Origin: Gracilaria domingensis
Lineage: Eukaryota; Rhodophyta; Florideophyceae; Gracilariales; Gracilariaceae
Direction of reading: 5' to 3'
Length of the DNA: 64,000 bases
NCBI GenBank assembly: GCA_022539475.1
Contig: VCMS01000181.1
Location: forward strand, 98,571 to 162,570
A program made the position numbers and the translations under genes. Below are positions 11,911 to 62,022 of the stretch, piece after piece. The notes under the pieces were generated by a model. The model had not been told where the DNA came from, did no database searches, and worked only from the letters and a program-made list of their open reading frames with translations. The stretch's first letter is position 1. Each line of letters begins with the position of its first letter.

Positions 11911-11922
11911 GTACATGGTATC

Positions 11923-19139: not shown

Positions 19140-22100
19140 GGTGCGATTGGGCAAAGCGGTAACAATACCGCCTATGAACCACTTGGTAGTGAAGGTCACA
19201 TGCCAACAACCTGGCCTGTTATCCGTTCAGAACCATTCACGGTTGGCCCGAACGACACATGACCTTAATGGCGAATGGTATAGTCGACAACATACCGACA
19301 AAACCGTTTCAGGTCTACCTGAGTAACTTCAGCAACCGCCCGGTCAAGTTGCCAAAACACACCGTAATTGGTCTTGCCTTACCGGCTCCCCGTACGATCT
19401 TTACGATTATACCACAATGGTCCCACGAGTTCGTGGATGCTAAGGAAGGGGGGCAGTGTCAATTCGTTGAATTCGTCGCGAACAGACCATATGGTGCAGC
19501 GACTAGCTGAGCGAGAAGACCAGAAACTGGAGCTCGACCCAGTGACCAATTGGAAGACGGAGGTGAATATAGGACTTGAAGGGGAAGAGCTCAGAGCTCG
19601 GATCCTTGGACTCCTGGAGCCATTCAGTACCATGTGGTCGGGTAAGCTGGGAGCCATTAAGGCCACCCAGCACAGGATTGACCTCAAACCGGACTCCCGT
19701 CCCATCCACCAACAGCCATACCGTGCGGGACATAAGGCCCGTGAGGTAGAGCTGGAGGAGGTAGAGCGGATGCTCCGCGAGGGGTTATAGAACCGGCAAA
19801 CTCGGAATGGGCTAGCCCTGTAGTGCTAGTCCAAAAACGAGGAGAGACCCGTATGAGGTTCTGTATTGACTACAGAAAACTTAATGCCGTAACGGTAAGG
19901 GACTCGTACCCCATCCCGAGGATGGATGAATGCATCGACTCCCTAGGAGATGCGAACATCTTTACCACACTGGACGCCAACTGCGGGTATTGGCAGATCG
20001 AAATACCAGAGGTGACCGTGATAAGACTGCGTTTACATGCCACGCAGGCCTGTATCGCTTCTTACGCATGCCGTTTGGTTTAAGAAACGCCCCCGCTACC
20101 TTCCAAAGGGCGTTAGACATTATACTGTCTAAAGTGAAGTGGACAACCGCATTGGTATACATAGATGACGTAGTCATCTACTCGAGGTCCATAGAGGAGC
20201 ACTTCTCACACGTCCAAGTGGTACTGCAGTTGCTACAAGAGGCAGGCGTGACCCTCAAACTACGAAAGTGTATGTTCTTCAACCAAGAGGTAGAGTACCT
20301 AGGGCATACAATAAGCCCCGGGAAACTCGAAGTGACCAAACGGAATATCCGAGCGGTACAGGAAGCGAAGCTCCCTACGTCGCAGACGGACATACGATCC
20401 TTTATAGGTCTATGCAACGTCTACCGGCGGTTCATCAAGGGTTTTGCAAAGATAGCCGCACCCCTGAACCGGAGGTTGCAGAACGGGCAGCCCACATACT
20501 TTGACCACCTGGAAGAGGACGAGGTAGAGGCGTTCTATACATTGAAAGCAGCGCTTCTCTCCCCACCGGTACTGGCATTGCCCAAAACGGGACTCCCGTA
20601 TACACTGGACACGGATGCGTCGGACGCCCAAATAGGTTGCTGCCTAATGCAGGAACAGGAGGACGGCAAGCTCGCACCAATTGGGTATTGGAGTAGAGCT
20701 CTTAACCAAGCGGAGCAGAACTACACCGTAACGGAGAAGGAATGCCTAGCGGTTGTTTGGAGCATGCTCATGCTACGTCCTTATCTATATGGTGTGCGCT
20801 TCACGCTCCGAACGGATCACGACTCCTTGAGGTGGATATTAGGCTTGGCGGACGCATCGGGTCGTCTGGCCCGATGGCGTCTGAGACTCTCGGAGTTTGA
20901 GTACGATGTGCAGTACCGCCCCTGGGTCAAGCACCGAGTGGCGGATGCATTGTCCCGGTTGAATACCGAAGGATTGGACACTGACCCAGTGGACGACGAC
21001 ATCCCATGCTTTACTATAGAACTAGCTAACCACGAGGTCAATGAAGTTCTGAAGGGATACTGGCATGATGACAGTACGCACCAAGTGGTAGTGGAGACCC
21101 TCCTTCCTGTGGAGGAAGGGGAACACGCTCCAATCACCCGTGAGGAATTCTTACGCGAACAATCGACCGATAGGCTGTGCAAAACGCTCGCTGACGTACT
21201 TGGAAGGAAGGATTCTCATTTCGACGTCGACCACAATGGGTACCTCATCAGACGCTCACCTTTAGACGGAGCTCTCCAGAAGGTCGTACCTGAGTCATTA
21301 AGACAAAGGGTGTTATATCTGTCACACAATCCACGGCTTTCGGGGCACCCTGGAGCCACGCGGTTGTACTATACCCTTCGGAGGCAATTCTACTGGCCGC
21401 ATATGGCTAACGATGTATATACCTATGTGGCGCAATGCAATTCGTGCATCAAGACCCGAGGTGGTGTGGCGAAGCACAGGAAGTACCTAAAGCTATTCCC
21501 GGCGGCGGGGCCCCTGGAATTCGTAGCAATCGACATACTGGGGCCCCTGCCCAAGACCTCAGAGGGTTATCGCTTTGTAGTAGTCATAACCGACAGGTTC
21601 ACAAAGCTCACCAGAGCCATACCTCTGAAGAACCAAACGGCAACGACACTAGCGACAGCCTTCCTGGAGAATTGGGTCTACCCGTACGGTGCTCCCATGT
21701 ACCTACTGACCGATAACGGTTCGAACCTAGCTTCTAAGTTCTTCGAGGCGGTTTGTACAATGCTAGGGGTCAAGCACTACTTTACCACGGCCTATCATCC
21801 TCAAACAAACGGCCAAGTGGAACGCTTCAATAAGACCCTAGTGGCACGCCTACGGCACTATGTCGAAGAGCACCAAACCACATGGTCGGAGTATGTCCAA
21901 CCATTGACAAATGCGTACAACCTCCAGGTCCACAGGGTCACTCAAACAACCCCATTCGACCTGGTACTTTCGCGAACACCACATGGTATTATCGTCCAGC
22001 CCGGACCTGACCGCTCGGAAGCGGCCGGGACACTCACACCGGCGAAGGTCAAGAGAGACATACTCCAGAAGTTACGCGCCGCTTTGGCTGCTGCCAAAGT

Positions 22101-22854
22101 TAAGATGACAGCAGCCCAAGAACGGTATAAAGCGGACTATGACCGAACGGTGAGCAAAGTGACCAAAGTGGTAGCAGGAGACATGGTCTTCCTTGACGTG
22201 CCACCAAAAGGTAAGCGACCAACCCCAGCGGAGATGGAAGAGGACATCCGCCTTGAGGAGGATATCAATTCTAAACTACTACCCAAGTCCACGGGACCAT
22301 ACAAGGTGATTCGCTCCGACGAGCATACCGCTACGGTCATAATGGAAGGTTTGGAGAACACGGTCTCCATCGACAGGATTGTCAAGGCCGCACAACCGAC
22401 GACAGCGAATGCACAACCAATAGGTGAGCCAACGCAGCAGGAAGCGGAGAGGGAGCAAACGTCTCCCATACCCCCTCCTATGATGAGTCAGCCGAGCGGT
22501 CAACCTTCCACCAGAGCCGTAACGGCTGACCCCACGACCCAAGCGGCACAGGAGATCGAGCCTCGGCAAGACCAACGGGTCACACCACCCACGGGGAGCC
22601 ACGCACCCCATGACCAAATGGAAGAGTCACACCCTCAAGTAGACACTCAGGAGTGCGCTATTGACACCATTGTAGGTCACGAACACACCACAAAGGGTAT
22701 GCGCTACCGGGTAAGATGGTATGGATGGTCGCCCGAGCACGACTCTATGGAACCACCTGGTCATATCCCTAACAACTTCATCATCCGATACTGGCGCAAA
22801 CAAGGGCGAACGCCCCCACCAACTGGTATTGCTTCGCGTGGTACGCGTCGCTAA
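19140..22854 (+). pseudogene. Ty3/gypsy pol, element 1 (RT-RNase H-integrase-chromodomain)
   Basis: Readable in order: linker after protease (~19140-19500), RT with F-C-I-D-Y-R-K-L-N (~19860) and Y-I-D-D at 20158-20169, RNase H with D-T-D-A-S (~20610), integrase H-H-C-C finger (~21320-21450), integrase Asp (I-D-I-L-G), Asp (L-L-T-D-N-G-S) and Glu (V-E-R-F-N), then a linker. The C-terminal chromodomain has the Y-R-V-R-W-Y-G-W signature (22680-22800). From about 20012 to TAA at 22852 the frame is open. Upstream there are one-base shifts near 19260, 19505, 19788 and 20010, so the copy is either decaying or carries consensus errors. The protease core is not recognisable. The chromodomain would direct integration to marked chromatin. 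Confidence 0.9.
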
Positions 22855-22868: not shown

Positions 22869-23006
22869 TTATCGAAGCCGTTGAACGCCACGCTACACGA
22901 AAAGCTAACTAACTAACCTCACAGGAAAACAAAAGAAGATCAGAGAACACAGTGCAAGACACTTTATTAGTCGAGAAGAATCCACGAGAGGGAACCACGA
23001 GGTGAC

Positions 23007-25784
23007 TTAGGAGGCCTTGGAGGACCCACGGCCACGTCCGCGTCCACGACTGGTTCCACGACCGCGACCACGTCCACGGGAGGTCCCGCGAGATGAAGCG
23101 GAACCTCCACGATCAGAGGACACCGACATAGGTCCGGCGGAGCTTCCGCCCCCGCCGCTAGCCGCGCTCGGTGGCGCACCACCACTTGGTAAGGGAGCAG
23201 AAGTACCAGCAGGTCCCGCAGGGGTACCGCTGCTGACTACCGGCATGGTATTCGCAGGACCAGTGGGTGGATGGAAGGAAGGCGGTAAGCTAGACGGAGG
23301 GATGCCACCAGAGGTCGGAGGAGCAAGACCACTAGACGGCCCTGCACCGGGGGTCAGACCAGTAGGCGGCCTAGGAGCACCGGACGTCGGCGGAAGCGGA
23401 GCCGAACGGAAACCAGTTGAGAAACCACTTGGTGTTCCTGTCCTAGTACTTGCTGGAGGAAGAGGAACGTTGTGAGGACCAAGCGGAGTATGGAAAGGTG
23501 CCGCAGGATCACCACCAGGAGGTCCACCAGGGAGTTGATACGTACCAAGGCCACCAAAGCCTACCATTGGGGTCGCAGGTTGCTGTGACGCAGGAGCGTA
23601 CGGGTTGAAACTTTCCACAGGGGGTCGATGTAACGGCGCGTGGCCTTCCACAAGGTTGCTCAACTGACCAACATAGGCTGTCACCTCACGGTAGAGATTG
23701 CGCTGGAAGTAGTCGCGGAACTGTCGCAGCTCAGAAGTGCGCCGCTCGTGGTGAGCAACCACGGGGAGCAAGTTGGTAAGAGTATCCACAGCGGTGAGGA
23801 TGTCATTGGGACCAGGACGGTTGAAGTGCACCATCGAGGCGTGGTTGAGACGAGCCAGAGCGCTCCGTATCGCGCCACTATCACCACCAGGGGGCACCGG
23901 ATTCACCGGAAGCGACTGGAAACCAACCCGAAGAGGCCCCTGGGCAGCCCGTCCGGGAGGGTGAGCAGCCGCCTGAGGGTTCGCCGGACCACTTGGAACA
24001 GGCGCAGCCACGCTGGTCGGAGGAGTAGCCTGTACAGGTGCCGACGGAGGCAATGCGGGGGACTCATAGTTCTCGGCAGCCACCATCACGGTATCGTCAT
24101 TACCAAATGGGTCTTCGCCAGCCATGTGCTGCTGTTGGAGAGGCACGATGCTATGAACCTCCGGGTCGTAGACATCCCAACCCTGTTCAGGCCCCCAATT
24201 GTGGTTACTTACCGCAGTGAGGTAGCCATCCAACTGCTGCGCAGTATATTTGGTGCCCTCCACGATGTTGGAGAGCCCCATGGCACGAATGTCGCCGACC
24301 ACATCGTTGGGAATATTGAAGATACGACCAACTGGTTGAGTTCCGCTGATCCCGACAGACTTGTCAGGGCAGCGCGTGTCCCAAGTCACACCTTCCACGG
24401 AAGCCTGAAGGGCGAGGATAGCCACCATGACGGCCCACTCGCTGCGCGCGACCGACCAAACGGCATATGCGTTGTTCCTCTCGAGGGAGATGCTACTACC
24501 AAAGTACGCAAGGACCGGCGGGGTCGGCACTTCCAGCCACTGACATACTTCATAGTGGTCCCACCAAGAGGGTCGATTGACATACCATGTCCGGCGGTTG
24601 TGGTCGCTCTGCGACCAATACTCAACGTTGTGGAACAGGAACATGGTCCGCGTACGGTTGTTACGGTGACGAACACGGCTCTCAGCCATCGCATCGGTCG
24701 CCCACCTCCCACGGTCAGTCCAATAATTGGTGTCTAAAGGGCGCTCAAACGCGACGTACTCCAGATCGACCTCGATGTGCGTAGCAGGTTCGTCCAAGCG
24801 GTGAAGGATATCTACCAAACGGCGGAAGTAGTGGACCTCCCTATCGCAGCGGATGAAGGGGAGATCCGACGGTACGGCCACGGGGATGTAGTATAGAAAC
24901 TTCGTGTGTCGCTGCCGCGCATGGAAACACTGTTGTCGACCGAACCGGCTCTGCTTCTCGCCCTTGCGTGGTGGAGGAGGTGCCATAGGCACCGCCTCCA
25001 ACCGGCGACAATCCCAACGGGCAATTGCGGTATACTGCGTGAGACCCATGTGGCGGAACCGCAAGGGACAGAGTGAGGAACTGATGTGGAAAGGCCAGTT
25101 CCCCAGAGCGACTAATTCGGCGGAGATATCGGCAAAGCGTGCACCATAGTGGGCATGCGGCTGCCCGTGCGTCCTATTAAGGTCATGAGGATTCAGCTGT
25201 TGAGCCTCCACCGTACCGGCCACCGCAAGAGGGTTAACGTTGCTCGGGCCCGCGGCGGCTGCGTAGGGATCATACCCACCGCGACCGTAAGGGTCTTGAC
25301 GAGAACGCGTACTCGACCGCGTGTTAGGCTTGAAGATGCCACCTCCGCGGCCGCGCGCTACCCCAGGGGTCTTGCCAGACATCCTCGACCGGGAGGCAAC
25401 AGTTTCGCGAACCGAACGGTTGACCTCCGCCGAGGGGGATACTTCAGAAGCCGAATATCCCTTTATAGGGTCGAAGTGCGGCTCCTCCAATACCAAGTGG
25501 TTGGCCTCCACGGGAGCCTCGGCGCCCGATGGAAAGGACACAGGTGTACCGGTCTGGGACGGCAGACAGGGCTGCGAAGAGTCAACCACGTGGTAATTCG
25601 ATTGAAACGGCGCCGTCTCACCCCCGGGGTCCACCACAACGGGAAGGGCGCGCGCGATGCCCTCCTCGGCACCGTCTTCACGGCGCTCGAACGTCATCGA
25701 CCACCCTGTTGGGGAAGCGGGTTGATCACCCATGAGGTATAAAAGGCGCGAGTTGGAGCGAGAGCGTGCCACGGAGGATACCAA
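23007..25784 (-). CDS. Antisense accessory gene of element 1 (925 aa), unknown function
   Basis: One unbroken frame on the strand opposite to pol, filling the space between pol and the 3' LTR. The first ~190 residues are low-complexity (a possible alternative start is Met18). Residues ~200-550 are ordered and rich in Trp, Tyr and Arg, including W-W at 407-408, F-G-S-S-I-S...S-E-W at 428-450, I-P-N-D-V at 491 and V-Y-D-P-E-V at 538. The remainder is Pro/Gly-rich with R-G-R-G-R-G repeats at the very end, a nucleic-acid-binding type of tail. The ordered blocks align with the antisense genes of element 2 and of the relic at 47-50 kb. There is no signal peptide or clear membrane span, so an envelope is unlikely, and no zinc knuckle. 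Codons are intact although pol has shifts. Confidence 0.85.
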   Translation of the reverse strand: MVSSVARSRSNSRLLYLMGDQPASPTGWSMTFERREDGAEEGIARALPVVVDPGGETAPFQSNYHVVDSSQPCLPSQTGTPVSFPSGAEAPVEANHLVLEEPHFDPIKGYSASEVSPSAEVNRSVRETVASRSRMSGKTPGVARGRGGGIFKPNTRSSTRSRQDPYGRGGYDPYAAAAGPSNVNPLAVAGTVEAQQLNPHDLNRTHGQPHAHYGARFADISAELVALGNWPFHISSSLCPLRFRHMGLTQYTAIARWDCRRLEAVPMAPPPPRKGEKQSRFGRQQCFHARQRHTKFLYYIPVAVPSDLPFIRCDREVHYFRRLVDILHRLDEPATHIEVDLEYVAFERPLDTNYWTDRGRWATDAMAESRVRHRNNRTRTMFLFHNVEYWSQSDHNRRTWYVNRPSWWDHYEVCQWLEVPTPPVLAYFGSSISLERNNAYAVWSVARSEWAVMVAILALQASVEGVTWDTRCPDKSVGISGTQPVGRIFNIPNDVVGDIRAMGLSNIVEGTKYTAQQLDGYLTAVSNHNWGPEQGWDVYDPEVHSIVPLQQQHMAGEDPFGNDDTVMVAAENYESPALPPSAPVQATPPTSVAAPVPSGPANPQAAAHPPGRAAQGPLRVGFQSLPVNPVPPGGDSGAIRSALARLNHASMVHFNRPGPNDILTAVDTLTNLLPVVAHHERRTSELRQFRDYFQRNLYREVTAYVGQLSNLVEGHAPLHRPPVESFNPYAPASQQPATPMVGFGGLGTYQLPGGPPGGDPAAPFHTPLGPHNVPLPPASTRTGTPSGFSTGFRSAPLPPTSGAPRPPTGLTPGAGPSSGLAPPTSGGIPPSSLPPSFHPPTGPANTMPVVSSGTPAGPAGTSAPLPSGGAPPSAASGGGGSSAGPMSVSSDRGGSASSRGTSRGRGRGRGTSRGRGRGRGSSKAS

Positions 25785-47257: not shown

Positions 47258-49759
47258 TCAGCCGCTGGTCGGAGGAGCACCACTTCCCGCGTTGGGATTC
47301 TGCGAGAAGTACTCGCTCGCGAGGGCAGCTAGCCCTGCGATGGTGTTCACTCCCGGAGGGATTTGCACGCCATGAGCCTGAAGATCTGCCCGAAGGGAAG
47401 CCACACTTCCAGCCCAATTTGCCGGTTGTGCGGTGGGAGCTATCAAGGACCATCCCTCAGGGGCAGGAGCGCCCTCCGTCGGGACCGCAGTTGCGTTCCG
47501 ATCCGTGTTCGGAATGCCAGTGAGTTGTTCCGTTCTGGCAACGATCGCGATCTCATCATTACCCACCATTGGATCGGGGACATCCGAGGGCACGGCGTAG
47601 TCCTCAGGGGACATAAACCCAATTGGGTGACCTACCGGCATGGCGCGGGGAAGTGCGGCCATCGCGTTCGCTTGCTCTTGTGAGATGAGCTGGCGCTCCC
47701 ACGGGTCGTAGTACACCCAAACCCCGGAACGAGTAGAAATTCGCCCCGGAGATCGGTCTCGGAAGCGCTGTCGCCGGTCAGGTTGCCACGTCACCGGAAC
47801 CCGGTCCCAATCGACCCTGTCGATAACATCCAGTAGTTCCTCAACTTCTTCTTGGTTAGCTTCGGAACCCAATGGGGTATTCATCTCAATCCTTCGTAGG
47901 AGCCACCTCAGGTTAGGAGGGAGGTACTACAAGCGGTAATGGTCATAAGCATCCAACAGGAGGTGAACCGCTACGCGGGCAGCCCACTCGGCGAGCACCA
48001 AAGACCAATAGCCCGAGTGGGGATCGTCAATTAACCGCGAGCCGAGGTAATAGACGCTCGCCGCGAGCTGTGCGAAGCACCCAGCGGGTACCTCTACGCG
48101 ACTTCACCACGATGGAAGGGCCACATAACGGGAAGGCAGCGCATCGAAGCGCAAGCGGTCAACCTCCAGATTTGGATACGGAACAAGGAGTCCCCTGCGG
48201 GAGCGTGCGTTTCGCTCGAAGCTGACTCTTCTCTCGAACTCATAGAGATCCCTGTTGTGTCGCTGACTCCGTGAGAGGTATCGGAACTCTGCCCTGAGCA
48301 AGGGACGACTCCAGAGGAGGATGTCTGGATCAACTTCGCTGAAGTGATATCTGTGTTCCGCTTCCGGAAATGCCGCTAACGCGTCGCCATAGGACACTTC
48401 CCCGTATGTACGGTAATGAGACACGTCGAAGTCGTAAGAAGCCGGAATCGGATGATCATAACGTAACCTTCCAACCCTGGAATAGGCCAGACGGGCCATG
48501 TCACCACGAGCTTGGTCAAGGGACTCTCCGCGGTCGCCGCGAAGCAGATGAGGTTCCACCGCTATGCGGGTGCGCCATTCGCGAGAGCGCACGGCATCAC
48601 GAGGAAGCCCGCCAGGGAGGATTCCGTTCACGGCGTATGAGTCGATAAGGGCGTCATCGGTAACCACTGTCGGGTGATACCAAGGCGCTTGGGAGAAGAT
48701 CAAGCCTTCGCGGCGGATATCCCGATTCAGAAGGGACTCACGGCTGATCCACCCACGAGGGTTCACCGTTAACGGGACAGCTTGTTCAGCATTCCATGCG
48801 ATGGCATTCGGGTCGAACGCCTGTTGTAACTGCCGGAGGTGTAGTATAGTGGATCCGATATGTATGGCAGGTAAGAAGGGGTATACTAGAGACTGGCAGG
48901 AAGCGCAAGGTGTCCCACGTGTGCGGAGATGGCACGCCGTGCGGACTTGTATGATAGTAACTACACGTAGCATAGTTGTAGATAGATGGCACCCGCTCCA
49001 CGTCTGGATATTTTCGCCACGTGGGCAGGGTGCCGATTCGGACTGTACGCGGTGAGTTGCAGCGTCGAGGTGCTACTTATGCACCTCCGCTCCTCCCGTA
49101 CACCCAACTAGTAAAGGGCAAGCACCACCGTCCTGAACTATCTCTTCGCTAAGTCAGACCTGCGACTAGAACCGTGACGGACGACTACTAGATTCCCAGG
49201 CCGTTCGGACTCAACGCGCGTTTCTCGACCGCGCCTGACGCTCCCAACCGCCCAGTCTCCCTACGACCGCCCGGTGCTGGCGTTCGTTTCCACGCGTTAC
49301 ACTTATACCCGACCGGATCACTGGACTACACGCCCCGCTTACGAACTTACACGGATCGCGCCTCTAGGACTCTTTCGCCTGACGGCGCTATCTCACAGGA
49401 GGCGCAGGAGCGATCAGAAGAGGAACACTCGGATGGAGATACGCCTCATAGAAGTTAAGAGGAGCGGTCATCTGCGGGAGAGGTTGAACCTGCGGGTGAG
49501 GATGAAGGAGACCAGGATGGTAATTTCCCGCTATGGACTGTTGGTATGGACCCCCGTATGAATGCCCTTGAGAGAGGGGAGCTGATTGAAACCCGCCGAA
49601 GTAGCCGGAAGGTGCCACAGAGAGCTGTCCCTGTTGGCAAGCGCTACCCGAGGGTGCCTCAGACGCCGCCTGCGGAGCTGACGACGAGTTCCCCGGGAGT
49701 GGGTTGGTTTGGAACGGATTCATCCCTGTTGTAGGAGAGGCTGGAGAAGAATCAGACAC
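47258..49759 (-). pseudogene. Antisense accessory gene of the Ty3 relic, interrupted by a solo LTR
   Basis: Minus strand. 49759-49403 encodes a Gln/Pro-rich N-terminal tail starting M-N-P-F-Q (49723). A solo LTR occupies 48840-49397. 48834-48104 and then 48080-47890 encode the ordered region, and 47884-47258 the C-terminal part after a stop and frame change near 47935. Blocks shared with the antisense gene of element 2 include G-W-I-S-R-E-S-L, A-P-W-Y-H-P, N-G-I-L-P-G-G-L-P, R-T-Y-G-E-V-S-Y-G-D, R-A-E-F-R-Y-L, P-Y-P-N-L-E, G-S-R-L-I-D-D-P, E-W-A-A-R-V-A and D-V-I-D-R-V-D-W. By eye about half of the residues are identical over most of the length. Function unknown. Confidence 0.85.
48840..49397. 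repeat. Solo LTR (558 bp) with 5-bp target duplication
   Basis: Starts tgtagtatag and ends gctatctcaca, flanked on both sides by ggagg (48835-48839 and 49398-49402). Ends resemble the element 1 LTR. It has no internal region, so it arose by recombination between two LTRs after insertion into the relic's antisense gene. Confidence 0.92.
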
Positions 49760-50081: not shown

Positions 50082-51055
50082 TGTAGAGCAACGCATTTTG
50101 CGTGGTTATCAGGATGATGCGTCTCATATACTCAGGGGAGTGATACGAGGATGCACTCGAAGAGTTATGAGTTGGACCCAATTTTGGCGGTTACTTTTGG
50201 AATGGCTTTCCCACAGTTACCTGTAATCAGGGTTGCCATTGCTGGCCAATACCGCTAGGTGGACGCGTGTACTACACCACCGTGTGTGTGCATATTACGG
50301 GACAATAGGTAGTGCACCTGAGGTGCCTGACACTGGGCTAGCCACGTGTACGGACCCCCGCGGGTGTGCACCACGTGTACATAGTTAGTTTAGACCTACT
50401 TAGGTGAGCTCGACCTCGTCGTCGCGAGCACCTTTGTAAAGTCAACCCGAGCACTTCTAAGTGAACTCTTTGTCGAGTAGCGCTCTTCTGAGTGGACTCT
50501 ACACGAGTGAGGCTCTGGCGCCAGCCGCCTACGTGGGTTATCACTCTCGCGAGTATAGCCACGTCTGGTTACGGTGGTCCTACCCTCTCGGTACCTTTAA
50601 GGAACATCTGTCGTTGATGTCGGGACCTGAGGGTCGTACCGAGGAGGTATAGGACTAGATTACGAAGTGATCCGACTCTGTATAGAGTTTTGCCGTGTTT
50701 ACGGAAACCCGTGCATTACCGTTGGAGGATCTCGCCCCGCTCCGGGCACAGTGCCGAGGAGGCCCTACCCGTCGCGTGTGGGTGTTGTTTAGTTGTTGTT
50801 TTCTGTTGCTTTCCCTCTCGGGACTACACCTGTCGTTGGTCGTGTTTCATCGTTGCCGATACCACCCCATCTCAGAAGTTTCTCATCGTTTCCTCACCAC
50901 GTGGCCTATCACCTCTGTAGGTATAGCCAGTTGCCACTTCGGCCTTACAACCGAGTTACGGTGGTACAGAGGGCTCTGTCACTGGTCTGCCCTCTCTCAC
51001 GAGAGCGGATCTTCGGACAGTCTGGTGGGTTTCACTCTTCCGAGTTTGCCCCACA
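50082..51055 (+). repeat. 5' LTR of element 2 (974 bp)
   Basis: tgtagagcaacg...tttgccccaca, near-identical to 61050-62017. It should contain the promoter; no clear TATA position can be assigned by eye. Confidence 0.96.
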
Positions 51056-51058
51056 AAG

Positions 51059-51078: not shown

Positions 51079-51299
51079 GTTTTAGGTCACTGTCGTGGAA
51101 TTGACTTGATTGTTGACGGATCACCGTTTTCTGACAACGATCAGGGGACTCTTTAGAGTTTTGGAGGTTGACAACTTTTGAACGTGAACCGCTGACGTGG
51201 TGGTTTACCGAGAAGGTTTATTGAGTTTTCTTGTTCTTTGGGGACTCGTGTACGAGTTTAACTGGATCATCTGGATCAGATTGCCTACTGGTTTCCAGT

Positions 51300-53369
51300 A
51301 TGCCGCAACCGCCTCGAGGTTCTCGAGCTGGTTCAGCGCGGTCGTCAGCTGCGGTTCCACCCGTTGCACCGACGTCCCGGTCTATCCCAGATGAGGCGCA
51401 ACCTCTTGAGGTCGTACCCCGCCCCCGGAGAACGCGCTCAGTTACGGAAGCACCTAAGGAAAACGTGGGTTCTGCTCAACCCGTCGTTGAGACACCATCC
51501 ATGGTTAACCCTAACGCTGCTACCGTAGCCGAGTTGGCTAGGTTGGAATCCCGCTTGGATATTAATCACGCTGCTCACGTGGAACTCCTACAGGATGTTA
51601 CCTCGTTGAGGACGCAGGTTGATAATGCCCAGGTGAGGGATGTCTCAGGAGACTTACGTCTTCTGAGAAGGGACGTGAATTCCATTATGGAAAATCTGGG
51701 TACCCCAGACGTCTTCGTCACGGAGTACCGGGCATTTGTCGAGGAAATGCGCACCGATATCGGTCGAATTCGTTCGCGCTTGGAAACGCTGGAGGATACA
51801 ATCCGTATGGATGAAGCTGTGGACGCACAGGTTCCTCAAGGAAATCCATCTGCGGATGACGACCATCGTTCGGTGAAGCAGAAACGTCGACACCCAAAAC
51901 GAGTTCACTATGATTCGGATTCATCGCGCTCTGACTCGAGCGGCATGACTGAAGACAGTTCGTCAGATTCATCTGATAGTGATGACAACCGTCATAGGTC
52001 ACGTTCGACACGGTCGAAAGCGACGCAGTCTACTCAGGCAGTGATGAGATCACGCGTGAAAGGACGGCGCCACTTGGGACTCAAAGAGTTAAAGCCGACG
52101 GATCCGCTCTACACAAAGCTGTTGTCGTACCGCTATTATCGGTTGGAGGATGTTACTTCGAATCGCTCCTCGCGAGGAACCGGTAAGGTGAAGGACTACA
52201 TTCGAAGGTTGAATGTTACCCTTGAAACAAGGAAGTTCTCGGGGACAGATCCTATCCTTGTCTTGGATTTCCTTGCCAGGTTCGTCCAGGAGGCCGATAT
52301 ACTCGGTATGAGTGAAGCACAGGCATATGTGGCACTGCCGTACTTCCTAACAGGGACTGCGGAAGATCAGTACAACTCAGTTCGAGGAACCTCGAGAGCC
52401 TCGGAAGGAGGAGTCACGTGTTGGCCGGAAGCCGTGAACTACCTTCTCAGGTCGTACGCGACTTCCAACGCGATTTACAGCGCTACTCTTGCTGTTCGCG
52501 ACACTAGACAGAAGAGTGGAGAATCTGAAACGGTTTATTCAACGCGGTTGAACAAAGCGTTTCACCGATGTGGTAATATGTATTCCGCACAGGAGCGGTG
52601 TACCATGTTTGTTGATGGTTTGGACCCCACCATTCGGTCGTTGGTGGCTCGCCGACGCGAGGAAAAACGCCGAATGACGTACTTAGAGTTGGTTAATTAC
52701 GCCCAGGCGGAAGGAGAGACGTATCGAGCCCGCAACCCGGGGCAGCGCCGCTCGAAAGCGCTACTCGCGGAGAGTTCGTCACCATCGATGTCGGTTTTGC
52801 GACGTGAAACCGCTGTCGGTGATGCTGATAACGTCCACTTCATCGGAAGTAACCCCGATTCTTACGGATCTACGGACCTGCCGTCAACCTCGATTCCGAG
52901 CACGGAAGAAGACCCCGCATTGTATGCCCAAGGTGTCCGGGTGCCTGCAGCCCCGCTGCCTTACGCTAACAATTCGTCGCGTCTGAACCGTCCAGGGTGG
53001 AAGGACACAGCACCACAACGTCGAGTGGACAATCGCCCTCGCGACAAACCGGCCTCGGTCATATGTTACCAGTGCTACCTTCCAGGTCACGTACCGACGC
53101 AGTGCGTATTTCCGCCGTCGCACAGGCCGAAAATTATTGCGTATTACGACGCCCTCACGCCCGAGGAAAAGGAATCTGTTCCACGAAAGGAATATGATAA
53201 GGCCAGAGCTGAACTGGGATTACCGGTTCCGGTCTATGCTCAGCCCTCCGTTCCGGCACAGGCACCTTCGAACCAGGTTCAAGGCGAAGTACCCACGCAT
53301 GGGGTTCAGTTAAGCCCCCCGAACGGAGTTCACGCACCGAATTCGGTGAGCCCCGTTCAGAAAAACTGA
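51300..53369 (+). CDS. gag: Gag of element 2 (~689 aa)
   Basis: The preferred start is ATG 51300 (M-P-Q-P-P-R-G-S); the frame is open from 51231 but the first 23 codons lie in the leader. N-terminal third is Ser/Pro-rich with a coiled stretch and an acidic Ser/Asp run (~residues 205-255). Residues ~300-500 form the capsid-like helical domain (Y-F-L-T-G-T-A-E-D-Q-Y, then E-T-V-Y-S-T-R-L-N). A canonical CCHC zinc knuckle C-Y-Q-C-Y-L-P-G-H-V-P-T-Q-C lies at ~residues 586-599. The product packages the element RNA. Stop TGA at 53367-53369 is followed by pol in the -1 frame. Confidence 0.93.
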   Translation: MPQPPRGSRAGSARSSAAVPPVAPTSRSIPDEAQPLEVVPRPRRTRSVTEAPKENVGSAQPVVETPSMVNPNAATVAELARLESRLDINHAAHVELLQDVTSLRTQVDNAQVRDVSGDLRLLRRDVNSIMENLGTPDVFVTEYRAFVEEMRTDIGRIRSRLETLEDTIRMDEAVDAQVPQGNPSADDDHRSVKQKRRHPKRVHYDSDSSRSDSSGMTEDSSSDSSDSDDNRHRSRSTRSKATQSTQAVMRSRVKGRRHLGLKELKPTDPLYTKLLSYRYYRLEDVTSNRSSRGTGKVKDYIRRLNVTLETRKFSGTDPILVLDFLARFVQEADILGMSEAQAYVALPYFLTGTAEDQYNSVRGTSRASEGGVTCWPEAVNYLLRSYATSNAIYSATLAVRDTRQKSGESETVYSTRLNKAFHRCGNMYSAQERCTMFVDGLDPTIRSLVARRREEKRRMTYLELVNYAQAEGETYRARNPGQRRSKALLAESSSPSMSVLRRETAVGDADNVHFIGSNPDSYGSTDLPSTSIPSTEEDPALYAQGVRVPAAPLPYANNSSRLNRPGWKDTAPQRRVDNRPRDKPASVICYQCYLPGHVPTQCVFPPSHRPKIIAYYDALTPEEKESVPRKEYDKARAELGLPVPVYAQPSVPAQAPSNQVQGEVPTHGVQLSPPNGVHAPNSVSPVQKN

Positions 53370-53370: not shown

Positions 53371-56300
53371 TTCGGGAGTTTCCCCTACGGGAGAGGCGCT
53401 TTCCGAGCCGAAGTTAAAGGCGCCCGAGGCGTCACAGCTTCGCTCCCCAGCTGTTAGAATCCTTTCAAGGATAGCGGCTAAAACTGACGTGAGCTCAGAA
53501 CACCTTTCGGTTCTACGTCGTCCGTGGATACGGTCCCGTAATCTCCGTATTCCGGAAAGAGTTCTTGTGATGGCCAAGAGAAACTACAAAGTTTATGCCG
53601 ATCTTGGCTTGTCTAACCAGTTCATGGTTCGACAGTTGTCTGTGTTGGATACAGGAGCTGCACCGAACCTGATTCACCTTGAGTTGGTGCCACCCGCGCT
53701 ACGGGATGAAATTCGTCATGGTCCAGGTTTGGATATCGCGGATGCCAACAATAACCCGTTGCGTACTCTTGGGTACATACCTCTCATGGTACGATTAGGA
53801 ACCTGTATGGTTAAAGTGGATTTCATGGTTTGCAAAAGCATTGCCGCACCGGTGATACTCGGTTGTGACTTTTGTGATCGTTTTGTTGAAGCGATTCGAC
53901 CTCGAGCTCGAGTTGTTACCATGGATGATGGTTCCGAAATACCGATTGTAAGGAAACCGCTAAAGAGAGCTACACGCAAGCGCGTCCCGCTCCCTGCTGC
54001 ACAGGAAGTTCCAACCGTCGACCCGGTATCATCTAAGCTCCATGTGGCTCATGCCATCGCAATCCCTGCGCAATCCCAAGTTTGGGTCACCATAACTACC
54101 AAGCAGTCTGGTCTACGTGTGGTACAACCATTGCCATCATTGTATGATCAGAAGCAACTCGCTTTGGCGAACGGAGTAATCTCGGTGGAACCCGACAAAC
54201 CATTCAGAGTTTTGGTCGCCAACTTTGGCACAACCCGACAGTGGTTAGCTAAAAACCAAATCCTTGGTACCACTCTCCCACACCCTGCTGCTATCGTACC
54301 GACGAAGATACCCGTTGCGGATGTTCTCGGTATAACCGATGCTAAGGAGGGGGAGGGATCAGCGGAAACCGCTTTTACCGCATCGGTTACCCCGGCGAGC
54401 GAAGTTACCGAATCGCTGGCACCCACCGAGGGTAAAGCGTTGCCACCAGGAACGGAAGATACAGACCCTGTCAAGGAACTGGAACAGTTGAATTTTAATC
54501 ATGTACCTGAATCTCATAGAGGTAAGCTAAGAGAAATGTTGAGGGAGTTCACACCCATGTGGGATGGATCCCTCGGGACAATTGGAATCACGGAACACCG
54601 TATTGACCTACTTCCAGGTACTAGCCCCATTTCCCAACACCCATACCGGGCTGGTCCCAAAGCTAGGGAAGAAGAGCAATCTCAGGTTGAGAAGATGTTA
54701 CGCGCTGGCGTCATAGAGGCGGCTCAATCCGCTTGGGCCTCACCCGTGGTGCTAGTTCCAAAAGCGGACGGATCGTGGCGATTCTGTATTGATTACCGTC
54801 GTCTAAATTCGGTCACCGTCAAAGACGTTTATCCCATACCCAGGATGGACGAATATATTGACTCGCTTGGGAGTGCTACAGTGTTCACCGCCTTGGATGC
54901 CAATTGGGGATACTGGCAAGTTCCGATCCGTGAAAAGGATAAGGACAAAACTGCTTTTGTGTGCCACCAAGATTTGTACCGGTTTAAACGAATGCCGTTC
55001 GGATTAACCAACGCGCCGGCTACGTTTCAACGTGCTATCGATATCCTCTTGGCTCGATTCAAGTGGAAGACCTGCTTGGTGTATCTTGACGATATCATCG
55101 TGTTCTCCGATAACCTTGATGACCACTTAACACACGTCCGGGACGTCATGAGAGTCCTCAGGGACGCGGGCATTACGCTGAAACTCAAGAAGTGCGAGTT
55201 CTTCACAGATTCTGTCAAATACCTAGGGCATATCATTCGACCTGGACAGCTCTCAGTTGACGCAGTTCGCGTGAAGTCGCTGAATGAAGCGAAACACCCT
55301 ACGACACAAACGGAACTCCGCAGTTTTCTGGGTCTTTGTAATGTATATCGGCGTTTTGTCCCGAACTTCGCAGATATTGCGACCCCCCTTAACCACCTTT
55401 TGAGAAAAGGTCAACCAGTTCAACTGGAACCCCTAGGCGACGCGGAAGCGTCTGCCTTTTCGGCATTAATTGACGCAGTAACGTCACCGCCAATCTTGGC
55501 TTTGCCTAAGCTAGGACTTCCATTCGAAGTAGACACTGACGCCAGTGCACACCAGGTTGGTTGCGCCCTGTTTCAGGTCACGGAAGACGGCGTGAGACAT
55601 CCAATTGGATACTGGTCGCGATCCTTGAACGTACACGAACGTAACTACTCAGTTTCGGAGAAAGAGTGCTTAGCCGTTGTATGGCTCTAACTACACTGAG
55701 GCCATATCTTATGGGCAACCATTTTACGGTACATACGGACCACTCATCTCTCCGATGGCTCATGGAAATCTCGGAACCATCAGGACGCTTGATGCGTTGG
55801 CGCTTGAGGTTATCGGAGTTCGATTTCACAGTTACGTACAAAAAAGGAACGTTGAATCTGCAGGCAGATGCACTCTCCCGCTTGGGGACAGATGCAGAAG
55901 CGGCACCAGTTGACGATCTGGACATACCATGCTTTATGGTGGAAGAACAAGCAGGTTGGGTCGAATCCTTGTCGGATGACATCTGTGACGACATCCTGCT
56001 CACTTCTGAGAAGTTGGATCCCTTGACTGGATCTTTTGTACCCATCACTCCCGAGGAGATGATCCGAGAACAGCAAACGGATGAGTTTTGTACGCGAATT
56101 CGCGCTCGTCTCAATGGAGGAGATCGTATACCTTTTCAGGTTAACGATCAGGGGTACCTGGTTAGGTTAGTCGAAGCGTATACCCAAATTGTGGTCCCAT
56201 ACTCGCTGCAAAACCGTGTGTTGGTCATGACTCACTATGTGAAAGTAGGAGCCCACCCAGGAGGTCGAAAACTATACTTGACCCTGCGTAGGGATTTTTA

Positions 56301-57686
56301 CTGGCCGTCAATGGCATTGGACTGCTACGCAGTACGACGCTCTTGCACCGAGTGCGCTAAGAATAACGTGAAACTTCGTAAGTACTCGAAGAAGTTAACG
56401 CTGTTCCCAGCACGGTCTCCTTTGGAGTTTATCGCTATCGATATCTTAGGTGAATTGATCAGAACCGCAAGAGGTAATCGATACCTTCTGGTTATCACCG
56501 ATCGGTTCTCTAAGTTGGTACGGACAGTCCCGCTGAAACGGATTACGGCCACCGTGGTTGCACAAGCTTTTGTCACCCACTGGGTCTTTGTGTACGGTCC
56601 ACCGGTTCATCTATTATCAGATAACGGTTCACAGTTCACGTCGAAGTTTTTCCAGGACGTCTGTCGGATCTTGAGTGTCAAGAATCTATTTACGACCACC
56701 TACCACCCCAAACAAATGGTCAAGTAGAACGATTTAACCGTACCATGCTGAATGCATTAAGATCTTATGTGGCAGATCATCCTAAGGATTGGGATTTGTA
56801 TACGGACGCTATTACGTATGCGTACAACACCCAAGTCCACCGGGTAACGAAGCTAGCACCTTTTGAGTTGGTATTGTCAAGAGTACCGCCACCGGTTGCA
56901 ATCGAGGCTCAAGAAACGCTTTCTACGTACCCATCTGTTGGGTTATACAGGAACGCTTGGAAGGATTGGTTAACCAAAATGGTACCGGTCGCTCGCACAG
57001 CGATGGATAAGGCGCAGGCCGCTTATAAGCGCAACTTCGACGCGAAGGTTAAGACCCCATTACCAAAGGTCAAACCAGACGATATGGTATTTCTCCGCAA
57101 AGAATACTATAATCCGGAGAAGGAACGCCGCCACAAGCTCTCGCCTATCGCGGAAGGACCCTACAAGGTTATTTCCGTCACGGACGATACCGTAGTATTG
57201 GATATCAATAATCTCCACGAACGGATATCGTTAGACCGTGTCGCGCTGGCCCCACCACCCTACGTTCACGTTAACACCCAACTGGGTGAAGCTACAGGGG
57301 ACGAACAGGTCGTATCTTCGCGCCCTGCGACTCTCCGCCCTGATCGCGGCTTATCGGATCTACCGAAGTCAGAATCACCCACGCGGGTAGCACAACCCGT
57401 TGCGGGAGACGAAGAGGAAAACTCAACTAGAGTTGACCCCCCACCGGACGTCGTGGCTCCCGTGCCACCGCCTAAGGAGGGGGAGGAAAGTACGGAACCC
57501 GTTACACCGGCGTCGCACGGTCACACTGTGTCGCAAGGTACCGCCACCAATCTCGCGGTCTCTACCGATAGCGTTGTGGTGCGCCGAGGCGCTGTACCTC
57601 GTGGTGATACTCCGTCGAGTTCGTTGAGCAATGCGCTGGAAACGACACGACCCACCCAGGGGTACACACCGCTGTGGATAACGTAA
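53370..57686 (+). CDS. pol: Pol of element 2 (protease-RT-RNase H-integrase), two one-base breaks
   Basis: Protease: V-L-D-T-G-A with Asp at 53648 and V-I-L-G-C-D-F. RT: F-C-I-D-Y-R-R-L-N and Y-L-D-D at 55082-55093. RNase H: D-T-D-A-S, then Y-S-V-S-E-K-E-C-L-A-V-V-W. A missing base near 55682 breaks the frame, which resumes as L-R-P-Y-L-M-G. Integrase: finger ~56230-56360, I-D-I-L-G, L-L-S-D-N-G-S; a second missing base near 56710 hits the H-P-Q-T-N-G segment just before the catalytic Glu. The C-terminal integrase frame (56712-57686) ends with a Pro/Ser-rich tail. Both breaks sit in short homopolymers and could be consensus errors. The chromodomain is not in this frame. Confidence 0.93.
54342..54357 (+). 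promoter_or_regulatory. Internal polypurine tract, protease-RT linker
   Basis: ctaaggagggggaggg, encoding A-K-E-G-E-G. The same motif occurs at the equivalent point of element 1 (19440). Confidence 0.5.
57472..57490 (+). promoter_or_regulatory. Internal polypurine tract near the end of pol
   Basis: ctaaggagggggaggaaag, nearly the same as the 3' tract (61036) and comparable in place to 22851 in element 1. Confidence 0.5.
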
Positions 57687-58509
57687 CCCCGTCGGGAACA
57701 CCACAACTGAGTGAGGTCACCACCCGCAGAGCGGAGAAGACAGTATCTGTAGACCCGGGCTTCCCGGAGAACGCAGAGCCGCAAGCGGTAGATCAGCTCA
57801 ATGTTACCGACCGGTGTTAACCACGCCGTGGTATGAGGAAACGAGAAGTCGTACTTACCCGCGTATTATTTGGGAAAACAACCTTGGAAAGGTGAAGTAC
57901 GAAGTACGAGTTTGGAAACCGTCGATGGTGCACCCACGCCGCGTGGCAGAGGACTCATGACACACCCAAGTGGAGAGTAACACGTTGTGGACGTGGTGAC
58001 GTAGGAAAGCACCGCCGACGCGGGGAACTGCTGACAGTAAGTCGCGTGCGCGAGTACCACACGTGCACGTGCACGATGTACGGTCGCCAACCGTAGGCGA
58101 ACGGACACCTGTTAGGGTAACTCGTGGCTCACACGTGCCACCGCCTGGCCAACCAGAAGGCCGCGATATGCACCGTGATTGGTCAATCCGCCTCCATGGC
58201 GCACGAGCGAGACCCTGCCCGTTCTCCGTCGCACGGAAGATCCTTCTAGATAGCAAGAGGGAGCTCAGAATCCCGAAGCTACCGTTGGACGGTTGGAAGC
58301 TCAACCAAAACGAGCCGAAGCTCGTCAGACTCAAGAAGAGAGTACTTCAAGAAGAACCTTTCAGGTTGAAGATTGGACGCTCCTGGCGTAAGTTGTAGTT
58401 GTCGCGCAGCGAGGAACTCCTAGTGAGTCGTGACTGGTTAAGTCCAAGAGGAACCCCTCTAGAGGTTAGCCGGCCACCACCTCGCCACCCTCGAAGGTAC
58501 GAAACCACA
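57687..58509 (+). other. Broken linker between integrase and chromodomain, element 2
   Basis: About 820 bp with open pieces in different frames (for example a V-W-K-P-S-M-V-H-P segment near 57915 and a Lys/Leu-rich segment 58250-58395) separated by stops. Either a decayed long pol tail, an intron, or untranslated spacer before the chromodomain frame. Confidence 0.35.
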
Positions 58510-58752
58510 ATGGGTGAAGGAGAGCAGTCAAACACCGAGGTGTATCCGCAGGAATACGTGATCGAACGTATCGTACGTCATGTTGTAGACCCCGATGGGA
58601 CGGTACTGTACCAAGTGCGATGGTATGGCTACTCCGCCGAGGAGGACACCATGGAGCCGGTCGAGCACCTACCGAGGTCGAAGATCGTTTCATACCACCG
58701 TCGCACTCGGTCAGCCTTGCCGTCGAACCTGGACCAAGCCCAGGTGGGATAA
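58510..58752 (+). CDS. Chromodomain frame of element 2 (80 aa)
   Basis: ATG 58510, then Y-V-I-E-R-I-V-R-H and Y-Q-V-R-W-Y-G-Y with E-E-D-T-M-E-P, a full chromodomain (aromatic cage residues Y/W/Y visible), ending TAA at 58752. The upstream frame is open from 58399 without another good start. In element 1 the same domain is fused to the integrase; here it is separated by 0.8 kb. It should bind methylated histone tails and steer integration. It may be a separate protein, a spliced exon, or cut off by indels. Confidence 0.8.
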   Translation: MGEGEQSNTEVYPQEYVIERIVRHVVDPDGTVLYQVRWYGYSAEEDTMEPVEHLPRSKIVSYHRRTRSALPSNLDQAQVG

Positions 58753-59121: not shown

Positions 59122-60861
59122 TTACACCCCCGATGAGGGACCGGCACCGCCGCTACCGGAGAGACCCTGCGAAGGGTGCGGAACGGCGTAAGCCAGTATC
59201 CCTGCCATAGTGGTGAGATGATCGGGCACGATAATTCCAGCGTTCTGGAGACTGGCGCGCAACATCGCGATGTTCGCCGGAGAATCTCCCGGAGCGACCG
59301 GAGCTGTCGGGGCCGGAAGGACCGAAGGAACGGTAGCCGCTACAGGGGCCGGACCCACCACCGGAACACTCGCTTGAGTCGGAACATTCCAACCCACAGG
59401 AGCCTGGGGTACCCCGCCGCTGGCGTGCAACACCTGATTCGCCGCCGGTAGGTCGTTCACCAACTCCTGGTCCATCTCGACGAGTGCTCCCGCCGCCTCT
59501 CCACGGGTATCCATGTTCGGATCATCCAGATCTACTGGGGCGACCCAGTTGTCACTGAACATGAACCCAACGGGGTGACTGTCTGGAATCGACCGTGGCT
59601 GGTTCGCTGCCCACTCGGCATATGCGCTAGTCGTCATCGTACCCTCCCATGGGTCGTAATACACGAAATCTCCTGCGGTGGGATGTCTCCTACCGGGTGA
59701 GCGGTCGTAGTGACGACGAGGACCTTTCCCACGCTGCGAACGGGGCACCGTTTCCCAATCGACTCCATCGATAACATCCAAGATGTAATGGATCTCATCC
59801 ACGTTCTCTTCGGACCCCAAGGAGTGTGCAAATCCAGCGAGCGGATAATGTTGCGAAGCATCGGCGGAATATACCAAACACGGTATTGTCGTAAGCCTCC
59901 CAGAGGAGAAACGCTGCTACGCGTGCCGCCCACTCGCCGGCTACCAGACCCCACCATCCTGAACGCGGATCGCTGATCAATCGGGAGCCGATGTAACTCA
60001 AGCACGGAGGCAGTTCTGCAAAACACCCTTTGGGTACCTCCACATCACGCCACCATTCTGGTAGAGGAGGGAACCGTCCAACAAAGGCCTGCGGTCTGTA
60101 CCTCTCGGTCTCGATATTCGGGTACGGAATCAGATACCCATGACGGGAACGAGCTTTCCGCTCAAACCGAATGCGGTTGACGAACCCACCCTGGGAAGCG
60201 TTCTTGCGAAGATAACGGAACTCCGCTCGGAGTATGGGCCGATTCCAGCACAACATCAACCTCGATGTGGTCGGGCCATCGCCAGCGTACCGCGCATGGT
60301 CGAACGTCGCCAAGTTGTCTCCATATCGGACTTCACCGAAAGTACGGTAGAACGGAGTATCGAACCCATATGACGGTGGAACCAGGTGCTCGAGGTGCAC
60401 TCGACTGAGTCTCTTGTACGCCAACTTCGCGTGTTCCGCGCGCGCGGTGTTCAGATTCTCACCCTCGCGGGTATCGTACCGGAGGAGCATCGGGTCGATC
60501 GCTATACGAACTTTCCATTCTGGGGATTGCACTACCGCTAACGGCAGACCGCCCGGTAGGAAGCCGTTTTCGGCATACGACTCCAGGAGAGTGTCATCGT
60601 TAACAGCTACCGGATGAAACCACGGTGCACGGCTGAACGCAAACCCATCACGGAGTGGATCGCGTACTGCGAGAGATTCCTTCGATATCCAACCAGCTTG
60701 GTTCGCCATCAGCGGCATCGCTTGCGCTGAATCCATAACGGAACGTTCACCGGGACCATCGGTTGAGACTGAGGCAGTGGAGCCGTCGCAGAACCCGGCT
60801 GAGGGTAGTTCGACGCGCTCGCCTGACCCGTCGGGTGATGAGGAAACTGATTCGGGTTCAT
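59122..60861 (-). CDS. Antisense accessory gene of element 2, unknown function, frameshifted
   Basis: Minus strand between the chromodomain and the 3' LTR. ATG 60861 starts M-N-P-N-Q with a Gln/Pro-rich tail; the frame changes near 60740 to 60736-59895, which holds the ordered region. Two changes near 59870-59890 lead to the C-terminal part 59850-59122, Pro/Ala/Gly-rich and ending G-S-G-G-A-G. Conserved blocks shared with the relic gene include G-W-I-S-K-E-S-L, N-G-F-L-P-G-G-L-P, R-T-F-G-E-V-R-Y-G-D, R-A-E-F-R-Y-L, P-Y-P-N-I-E, G-S-R-L-I-S-D-P, E-W-A-A-R-V-A and D-V-I-D-G-V-D-W. W-W, E-W and Y-D-P positions also match the element 1 gene. No membrane segment, no zinc knuckle, no known enzyme motif. 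Confidence 0.82.
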
Positions 60862-61035
60862 CGGAATGACAGATGATGTACTGTGATCGAGTTCGGATAC
60901 TTGAATACTCTGTCGCTTGAGTGTGTATCGCGCTTGCGAGGTATAGAAACCGAGGAGTTGGTACCGCTCATGATTGTGACGTATTTACGTACTTGCGTTT
61001 CGCACAAAACTTCAGCCTCGAAGTCGTTCTCGGCT

Positions 61036-61049
61036 CTAAGGAGGGGAGA
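61036..61049 (+). promoter_or_regulatory. 3' polypurine tract of element 2
   Basis: ctaaggaggggaga directly before the TG of the 3' LTR; the normal primer for plus-strand DNA. Confidence 0.85.
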
Positions 61050-62017
61050 TGTAGAGCAACGCATTTTGCGTGGTTATCAGGATGATGCGTCTCATATACT
61101 CAGGGGAGTGATACGAGGATGCACTCGAAGAGTTATGAGTTGGACCCAATTTTGGCGGTTACTTTTGGAATGGCTTTCCCACAGTTACCTGTAATCAGGG
61201 TTGCCATTGCTGGCCAATACCGCTAGGTGGACGCGTGTACTACACCACCGTGTGTGTGCATATTACGGGACAATAGGTAGTGCACCTGAGGTGCCTGACA
61301 CTGGGCTAGCCACGTGTACGGACCCCGCGGGTGTGCACCACGTGTACATAGTTAGTTTAGACCTACTTAGGTGAGCTCGACCTCGTCGTCGCGAGCACCT
61401 TTGTAAAGTCAACCCGAGCACTTCTAAGTGAACTCTTTGTCGAGTAGCGCTCTCCTGAGTGGACTCTACACGAGTGAGGCTCTGGCGCCAGCCGCCTACG
61501 TGGTTATCACTCTCGCGAGTATAGCCACGTCTGGTTACGGTGGTCCTACCCTCTCGGTACCTTTAAGGAACATCTGTCGTTGATGTCGGGACCTGAGGGT
61601 CGTACCGAGGAGGTATAGGACTAGATACGAAGTGATCCGACTCTGTATAGAGTTTTGCCGTGTTTACGGAAACCCGTGCATTACCGTTGGAGGATCTCGC
61701 CCCGCTCCGGGCACAGTGCCGAGGAGGCCCTACCCGTCGCGTGTGGGTGTTGTTTAGTTGTTGTTTTCTGTTGCTTTCCCTCTCGGGACTACACCTGTCG
61801 TTGGTCGTGTTTCATCGTTGCCGATACCACCCCATCTCAGAAGTTTCTCATCGTTTCCTCACCACGTGGCCTATCACCTCTGTAGTATAGCCAGTTGCCA
61901 CTTCGGCCTTACAACCGAGTTACGGTGGTACAGAGGGCTCTGTCACTGGTCTGCCCTCTCTCACGAGAGCGGACCTTCGGACAGGCTGGTGGTTTCACTC
62001 TTCGAGTTTGCCCCACA
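61050..62017 (+). repeat. 3' LTR of element 2 (968 bp)
   Basis: Matches 50082-51055. Six one-base deletions relative to the 5' copy account for the length difference; about three substitutions. Confidence 0.96.
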
Positions 62018-62022
62018 ACCCC

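What the first reader, a model, noticed from the sequence alone, without database searches (positions are those of the whole stretch)
59122..60861. A conserved antisense accessory gene in three independent Ty3 elements
Element 1 (23007-25784), element 2 (59122-60861) and the relic (47258-49759) each carry a large gene downstream of pol on the opposite strand. The relic and element 2 proteins share at least ten blocks, including N-G-x-L-P-G-G-L-P, R-A-E-F-R-Y-L and E-W-A-A-R-V-A. Element 1 keeps the W-W, F/I-G-S, S/G-E-W, I-P and V-Y-D-P landmarks in the same order. Conservation of protein blocks despite divergent DNA implies selection. It is not gag (element 2 has its own) and shows no signal peptide or membrane span. 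Extra antisense genes are known in some plant Ty3 (Tat) elements, but I do not recognise this protein.
Basis: partly seen in the sequence, partly recalled or inferred. Interest (0 to 1): 0.9.

Follow-up and report, generated by a model that had tools for sequence, protein, structure and literature searches.

The report
Antisense gene shared by algal retrotransposons
Jumping genes in this red-algal genome carry an extra protein gene written backwards near their tail end; evolution has protected it and its protein family is uncharacterised, so it is probably a working part of these elements and not chance.

Summary
Elements 1 and 2 carry a large minus-strand gene after pol/chromodomain. The relic is a decayed third copy, with no pol found beside it. 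The window's element-2 copy is frame-broken, but 53 of 121 genomic matches have no stop and >=600 open codons. Element 1's protein is a true remote homologue (profile score 113; 120 shuffles reach 26.8). dN/dS is 0.147-0.223 in five of six element-1 pairs and 0.417 in the sixth; pol tail 0.208. The gene lies opposite pol in 20 of 20 antisense-picked loci and opposite a chromodomain in five of five more. Integrases labelled Copia pair with it in 1 of 51 rows, others in 45 of 99; of six unpaired loci opened, four hold it. Relatives occur in Gracilariopsis chorda. No Pfam, NCBIfam, PHROG or PDB family matched. I read it as an ancestral accessory gene of red-algal chromodomain Ty3 elements, expressed from near the 3' LTR. 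Its biochemical role is inferred. A new variant of a known kind (antisense additional ORFs).

The parts
59122..60971 (-). Antisense gene of element 2 (broken frame in this copy)
   Evidence: ORF pieces 59122-59877 and 59795-60736; match to the intact L004 protein down to residue 1 at 60971
23007..25784 (-). Antisense gene of element 1, intact, 925 aa
47258..48856 (-). Relic of a third antisense gene (main part, two in-frame stops)
   Evidence: dN/dS 0.083 against L035
49559..49729 (-). N-terminal piece of the relic, about 700 bp away from the main part
50082..51055 (+). 5' LTR of element 2
   Evidence: outer edge ACCCC
51231..53369 (+). Gag-position ORF of element 2 (a CX2CX4HX4C zinc knuckle read by eye)
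   Evidence: no significant Pfam match
53489..57686 (+). pol of element 2 in three ORF pieces: RT, RNase H, integrase
58510..58752 (+). Chromodomain ORF of element 2
   Evidence: PF00385, E=1.3e-10
61038..61049 (+). Purine tract just before the 3' LTR (read by eye)
61050..62017 (+). 3' LTR of element 2, likely source of the minus-strand transcript (inference)
19930..22854 (+). pol of element 1 with chromodomain fused at its end
   Evidence: RVT_1, RNase H, H2C2, rve, Chromo

Best explanation
It is a protein-coding accessory gene belonging to a lineage of chromodomain Ty3 LTR retrotransposons of red algae, placed between pol/chromodomain and the 3' LTR on the opposite strand. Shown here: one homologous protein family with a ~300-residue core; the same position and orientation in the families opened; purifying selection on the minus-strand frame; divergence that runs parallel to that of pol. 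Inferred: a minus-strand mRNA starts in the 3' LTR or in the roughly 80 bp beside it, so it is made from integrated copies independently of the genomic RNA. The soluble protein of roughly 500-935 residues then acts in trans, most likely as a regulator that binds nucleic acid or chromatin, comparable in role to the antisense accessory genes of plant Tat/Retand elements and of some retroviruses. My estimates: selected coding gene of the element 0.95; own minus-strand mRNA 0.85; regulator of this kind 0.35.
For: Homology. Position: opposite pol in 20 of 20 antisense-picked loci, chromodomain match in 19 of 20; chromodomain opposite in 5 of 5 further loci, IN/RT in 4 of 5. L032, picked by its integrase alone, carries it (HMM E=8e-16). 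Integrase rows with an opposite-strand antisense match downstream: 46 of 150; wrong side 2 of 150; Copia-labelled 1 of 51, others 45 of 99. Selection: 0.147-0.223 in five of six element-1 pairs, 0.152 for L009-L012 with third-position excess P=7e-8, 0.083 relic-L035. Start codon 78-80 bp from the LTR in 15 of 15 element-2-type copies with an LTR match. RG-rich tail kept in 4 of 4 element-1 relatives.
Against: No transcript data. A simple nuclear-signal pattern occurs in only 2 of 15 proteins. Young element-2 copies give dN/dS up to 1.93. Two of the six 'unpaired' loci opened, L033 and L034, lack the gene: L033 is an interrupted copy of a family that has it, L034 has a distant integrase and no chromodomain match.
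Confidence: 0.5

Rival explanations
1. Silencing or defence antagonist: the protein shields the element from host RNA silencing or another defence, which would pay for the double-stranded RNA that convergent transcription risks.
For: Gene and chromodomain ORF converge with about 370 bp between them; the gene evolves faster than pol (F1-F2 dN 0.45-0.53 against 0.17-0.19), as antagonists often do. Chondrus crispus is said to have DCL and AGO (passage of PMC12026948).
Against: Fast evolution alone is weak evidence.
Confidence: 0.2
2. Particle, transport or integration co-factor: the protein joins the virus-like particle or pre-integration complex or helps the chromodomain choose target sites.
For: Found beside a chromodomain in 19 of 20 and 5 of 5 loci; divergence parallel to pol.
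Against: A particle component would more simply be translated from the genomic RNA; not related to gag by profile; no membrane span in six of seven proteins.
Confidence: 0.2
3. The antisense RNA itself matters, not the protein: the open frame is a by-product.
For: Antisense RNAs without coding capacity are described for other retrotransposons (PMC7264820).
Against: Selection acts on the protein frame: dN/dS 0.083-0.223 in diverged pairs with unsaturated dS; intact 610-935-codon frames in many copies; protein homology reaches across families where DNA similarity is patchy.
Confidence: 0.03
4. Unrelated host genes or other elements happen to lie beside these retrotransposons, or the frames are chance shadows.
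For: Shadow ORFs of 150-365 aa do occur opposite the genes.
Against: Same family, strand and side in the loci opened; recurrent integrase-to-gene spacings within groups (about 2121, 1498 and 3165 bp); the gene lies inside the LTR pair of element 2.
Confidence: 0.02

Closest known systems
Antisense additional ORFs (aORF-3R) of plant Tat/Retand elements: Grande GENE23, RIRE2, Retand with TRP28 PF04195 (PMC7264820, PMC11963269)
   Same: Large minus-strand ORF between pol and 3' LTR, present in most copies, role unknown.
   Different: No PF04195 match; these carriers have a chromodomain, while Retand is described as non-chromovirus; host is a red alga by inference.
brtn of Boty/BcGypsy1 in Botrytis cinerea (seen in PMC7264820 and in passages of PMC8365987)
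   Same: Additional antisense gene in an LTR element outside plants.
   Different: The brtn protein was not available for comparison; relation untested.
Retroviral antisense genes such as HBZ of HTLV-1 (from passages of PMC11963269 and PMC7264820)
   Same: Minus-strand gene near the 3' LTR; proposed analogy of role.
   Different: No sequence comparison made; nuclear-signal pattern rare in this family (2 of 15).
Hypothetical proteins BWQ96_10156 and BWQ96_03215 of Gracilariopsis chorda
   Same: Same protein family; a 610-codon family in this genome is 69-72% identical to BWQ96_10156 in its main matches, and other copies are up to 70% identical to BWQ96_03215.
   Different: Deposited without function; their genomic context could not be fetched.

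Membership tests
Chromodomain Ty3/Gypsy LTR retrotransposon (the carrier) | LTR pair with short target repeat | tested here: met
   Element 2: LTRs 99.08% alike, ACCCC at both edges. Element 1: no LTR pair found, 5' side at an N.
Chromodomain Ty3/Gypsy LTR retrotransposon (the carrier) | RT-RNase H-integrase order with chromodomain | tested here: met
   Pfam matches in both elements.
Antisense additional ORF between pol and 3' LTR (aORF-3R) | Large ORF opposite to gag-pol, between pol and 3' LTR | tested here: met
   the 3' LTR itself was located for element-2-type copies only.
Antisense additional ORF between pol and 3' LTR (aORF-3R) | Conserved in most copies of its families | tested here: met
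   53 of 121 element-2-type matches stop-free with >=600 open codons; 25 of 53 element-1 matches span >=874 residues without a stop (my count). Lists are capped.
Antisense additional ORF between pol and 3' LTR (aORF-3R) | Minus-strand transcript from its own or a 3' LTR promoter | not testable with these tools
   No RNA data held.
Tat/Retand TRP28 antisense protein | Transposase 28 domain PF04195 | tested here: not met
   Not among the matches for 6, 13 and 2 scanned proteins (very weak matches are dropped by the program's filters).
Tat/Retand TRP28 antisense protein | Carrier is a non-chromovirus element | tested here: not met
   Chromodomain in elements 1 and 2, 19 of 20 and 5 of 5 loci.
Envelope-like additional ORF | Same strand as pol, with membrane span | tested here: not met
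   Opposite strand; six of seven proteins below 1.5 in hydropathy, P0004 at 1.86.
Nuclear antisense regulator (GENE23/HBZ-like) | Nuclear localisation | tested here: inconclusive
   Basic-cluster pattern in 2 of 15 proteins; localisation itself needs an experiment.
Gag duplicate | Profile similarity to the element's gag | tested here: not met
   Score 18.6, within the range of the shuffles.

The most novel reading that the evidence does not exclude
A whole clade of red-algal chromodomain Ty3 retrotransposons is ambisense: besides gag and pol it has an obligate third core gene on the minus strand, encoding a protein family without known relatives. It would have arisen independently of the plant Tat antisense genes and would predate the split of this host from Gracilariopsis chorda.
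Probability: 0.55. Interest if true: 0.75.

Novelty: new variant of a known kind. Interest (0 to 1): 0.62.

Why it matters
Antisense genes in LTR retrotransposons are known from plants and a fungus, and their role is an open question. Here a protein family with no match to the plant TRP28 domain occupies the same position in chromodomain elements of a red alga, in many families, under selection similar to that on a stretch of pol. The same unusual layout in separate lineages suggests that a minus-strand gene gives LTR elements a general advantage. The many copies make comparative and transcript tests straightforward. It also gives annotators a signature for repeat-encoded 'hypothetical proteins' in red-algal genomes.

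Tried and rejected
Gag duplicate: rejected. Envelope-like: rejected by strand and hydropathy. TRP28 member: no match. Relatives in viral contigs and prokaryote genome contigs: none confirmed with the peptide patterns used. Nuclear signals: 2 of 15. Profiles against solved structures: three searches; best hits at chance level, RanGAP1 at E=0.9 and UHRF1 chain 6vee at E=0.07 over the most conserved motif; the latter is a lead only. A protein search with element 1 residues 200-700 found nothing; the profile search A3 returned the same 12 proteins. The stretch between pol and the chromodomain ORF of element 2 has no DNA match in the five loci compared; an intron was considered, not tested. Papers: ten searches listed no report of an antisense gene in red-algal LTR elements. 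Only listings were seen, except two of three parts of PMC7264820 (the rest unread) and passages of PMC11963269, PMC6338049, PMC8365987, PMC12026948, PMC12477816 and PMC5408684. The Bostrychia moritziana genome paper (Petroll et al. 2025), seen only as a citation, may treat red-algal elements and was not read. Genome-wide copy number is not settled: lists are capped, and the six lists gave 419 retyped entries, not de-duplicated.

Full report
WHAT IS THERE. The window lies in a 77.9-Mb, 680-contig genome. The only named relatives of the protein are from the red alga Gracilariopsis chorda, and one family here is 69-72% identical to BWQ96_10156 in its main matches, so I infer a related red alga. 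Element 2 is a full-length LTR element: LTRs 50082-51056 and 61050-62018, 99.08% identical, with TG...CA ends and ACCCC at both outer edges (read). It has a gag-position ORF, pol with RVT_1, RNase H, H2C2 and rve matches, and a chromodomain as a separate ORF at 58510-58752. Element 1 has the same domains with the chromodomain fused to pol; its 5' side meets an N at 18839 and no LTR pair was found.

THE GENE. Element 1 holds an unbroken 925-aa minus-strand ORF. The element-2 copy in the window is broken by frame changes, but many genomic copies are not: of 121 matches at >=80% identity, 86 have no stop, and 53 of these also have an open frame of at least 600 codons. For element 1, 53 matches are listed; by my count of the table 25 of 53 span at least 874 residues without a stop. 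The relic at 47258-48856 and 49559-49729 is the same gene with two stops and about 700 bp of extra DNA; no pol query matched beside it at E<=1e-4.

ONE FAMILY. Twelve database proteins match the element-2 protein: two from Gracilariopsis chorda and ten unnamed ones from other sources. With it they align with 20 invariant columns. With L009, L035, L032 and element 1 added (17 rows), eight residues stay invariant: R210, E214, Y217, R275, V313, P322, E347, R365, numbered on the L004 protein. Element 1 scores 113.4 against the family profile; 60 shuffles of the whole protein reach 22.4, 60 of its core 26.8, and six other window ORFs at most 23.9. The L032 protein scores 99.0, its 40 shuffles at most 24.5.

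POSITION. In 20 of 20 loci fetched by antisense match, the gene lies opposite pol and downstream of it; a chromodomain match is present in 19 of 20. In five further loci picked by antisense match the chromodomain is opposite in 5 of 5 and IN/RT in 4 of 5. Three loci were picked by integrase alone: L032 has the gene. L033 lacks it, but that copy is 98.3% identical to L035, which has it, only until about 100 bp past the chromodomain and then diverges, so I read it as interrupted. L034, with a distant integrase and no chromodomain match, shows none before an inserted element-2-type LTR. By coordinates, 46 of 150 integrase rows pair with a listed antisense match downstream on the opposite strand; 2 of 150 have one on the wrong side. 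After labelling by a neighbouring Copia RT, 1 of 51 Copia-labelled and 45 of 99 other rows pair; both source lists stop at 150, so some of the 99 may be unlabelled Copia. The antisense lists are capped as well, so 'unpaired' is not absence: of the six unpaired loci that I opened (of 54), four hold the gene, in broken frames (L041-L044), and two do not (L033 and L034, above).

SELECTION. Nei-Gojobori dN/dS for six pairs of four element-1-type sequences: 0.147, 0.223, 0.189, 0.161, 0.154 and 0.417; the pol tail of one of these pairs gives 0.208. L009-L012: 0.152 over 356 codons, third-position excess P=7e-8. Relic-L035: 0.083 with dS 0.675. Between F1, F2 and F3 the ratio is about 0.16-0.25, but silent sites are saturated, and one pair is undefined. 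Against: among nine young F1 rows the ratio runs from 0.37 to 1.93, highest where dS is very low. Two of 15 rows, with more than one stop, were dropped before that calculation. The gene changes faster than pol (F1-F2 dN 0.45-0.53 against 0.17-0.19).

CO-INHERITANCE. Identities of the RT/RNase H part and of the antisense protein broadly fall together across F1, F2, F3 and element 1, as expected if the gene entered once and stayed. The agreement is rough: by pol F1 is the nearer to F2 and F3, by the antisense protein F2 and F3 are nearest each other. In the 17-row tree, F1, F2, F3, the relic and P0001 form one supported group (100/98), and element 1 is a very long branch whose place is unsure.

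MECHANISM. The start codon lies 78-80 bp from the LTR in 15 of 15 element-2-type copies that have an LTR match, with the purine tract between. A minus-strand mRNA must therefore begin in the LTR or in that short leader. The antisense and chromodomain ORFs converge with about 370 bp between them. Such a gene can be read from an integrated copy without genomic RNA, which fits a regulator or protective factor better than a particle component; this is inference. No domain, consistent membrane span or consistent nuclear signal was found. The RG-rich tail in 4 of 4 element-1-type proteins is mild support for nucleic-acid binding in that group alone.

KNOWN AND NEW. Antisense additional ORFs in this position are known in plant Tat/Retand elements, where 97% of Retand clusters carry TRP28 (abstract and passages of PMC11963269), and in the fungal Boty (PMC7264820; passages of PMC8365987). 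This family did not match TRP28 in the scans here, and its carriers have chromodomains. I therefore call it a new variant of a known kind. That no paper reports it rests on the ten searches of an open-access library listed under Tried and rejected.

Noticed in passing
window 57687-58752: In element 2 the chromodomain is a separate ORF about 820 bp after pol, while in element 1 it is fused to pol; the stretch between has no DNA match in five other loci. An intron or a separate gene is possible.
   Followed up: partly
L029 against window 19930-25784: The pol tail of the pair L029/element 1 has dS 0.22, but their antisense genes dS 0.75, which hints at exchange of the 3' part between elements.
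   Followed up: no
window 7560-18850 and 45546-46909: Tandem arrays with periods of about 941 and 961 bp; the 941-type repeat recurs next to the relic.
   Followed up: no
window 27676-30014: Two minus-strand ORFs, one starting with a C2H2-like finger; no Pfam match at 0.001 for the larger. From recall they resemble a CACTA/Plavaka-type transposase; not tested.
   Followed up: no
G000, many contigs: Copia elements are also abundant: the list of 150 RVT_2 matches was filled.
   Followed up: no
L028: Carries an element-2-type antisense gene but no element-2-type LTR beside it; a different LTR or a rearranged copy.
   Followed up: no
C-terminus of the protein family: After a low-complexity stretch several members share a short helix-like motif around LRxFLRxxG; by recall it resembles SAP/HeH motifs, but no library model matched.
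   Followed up: no
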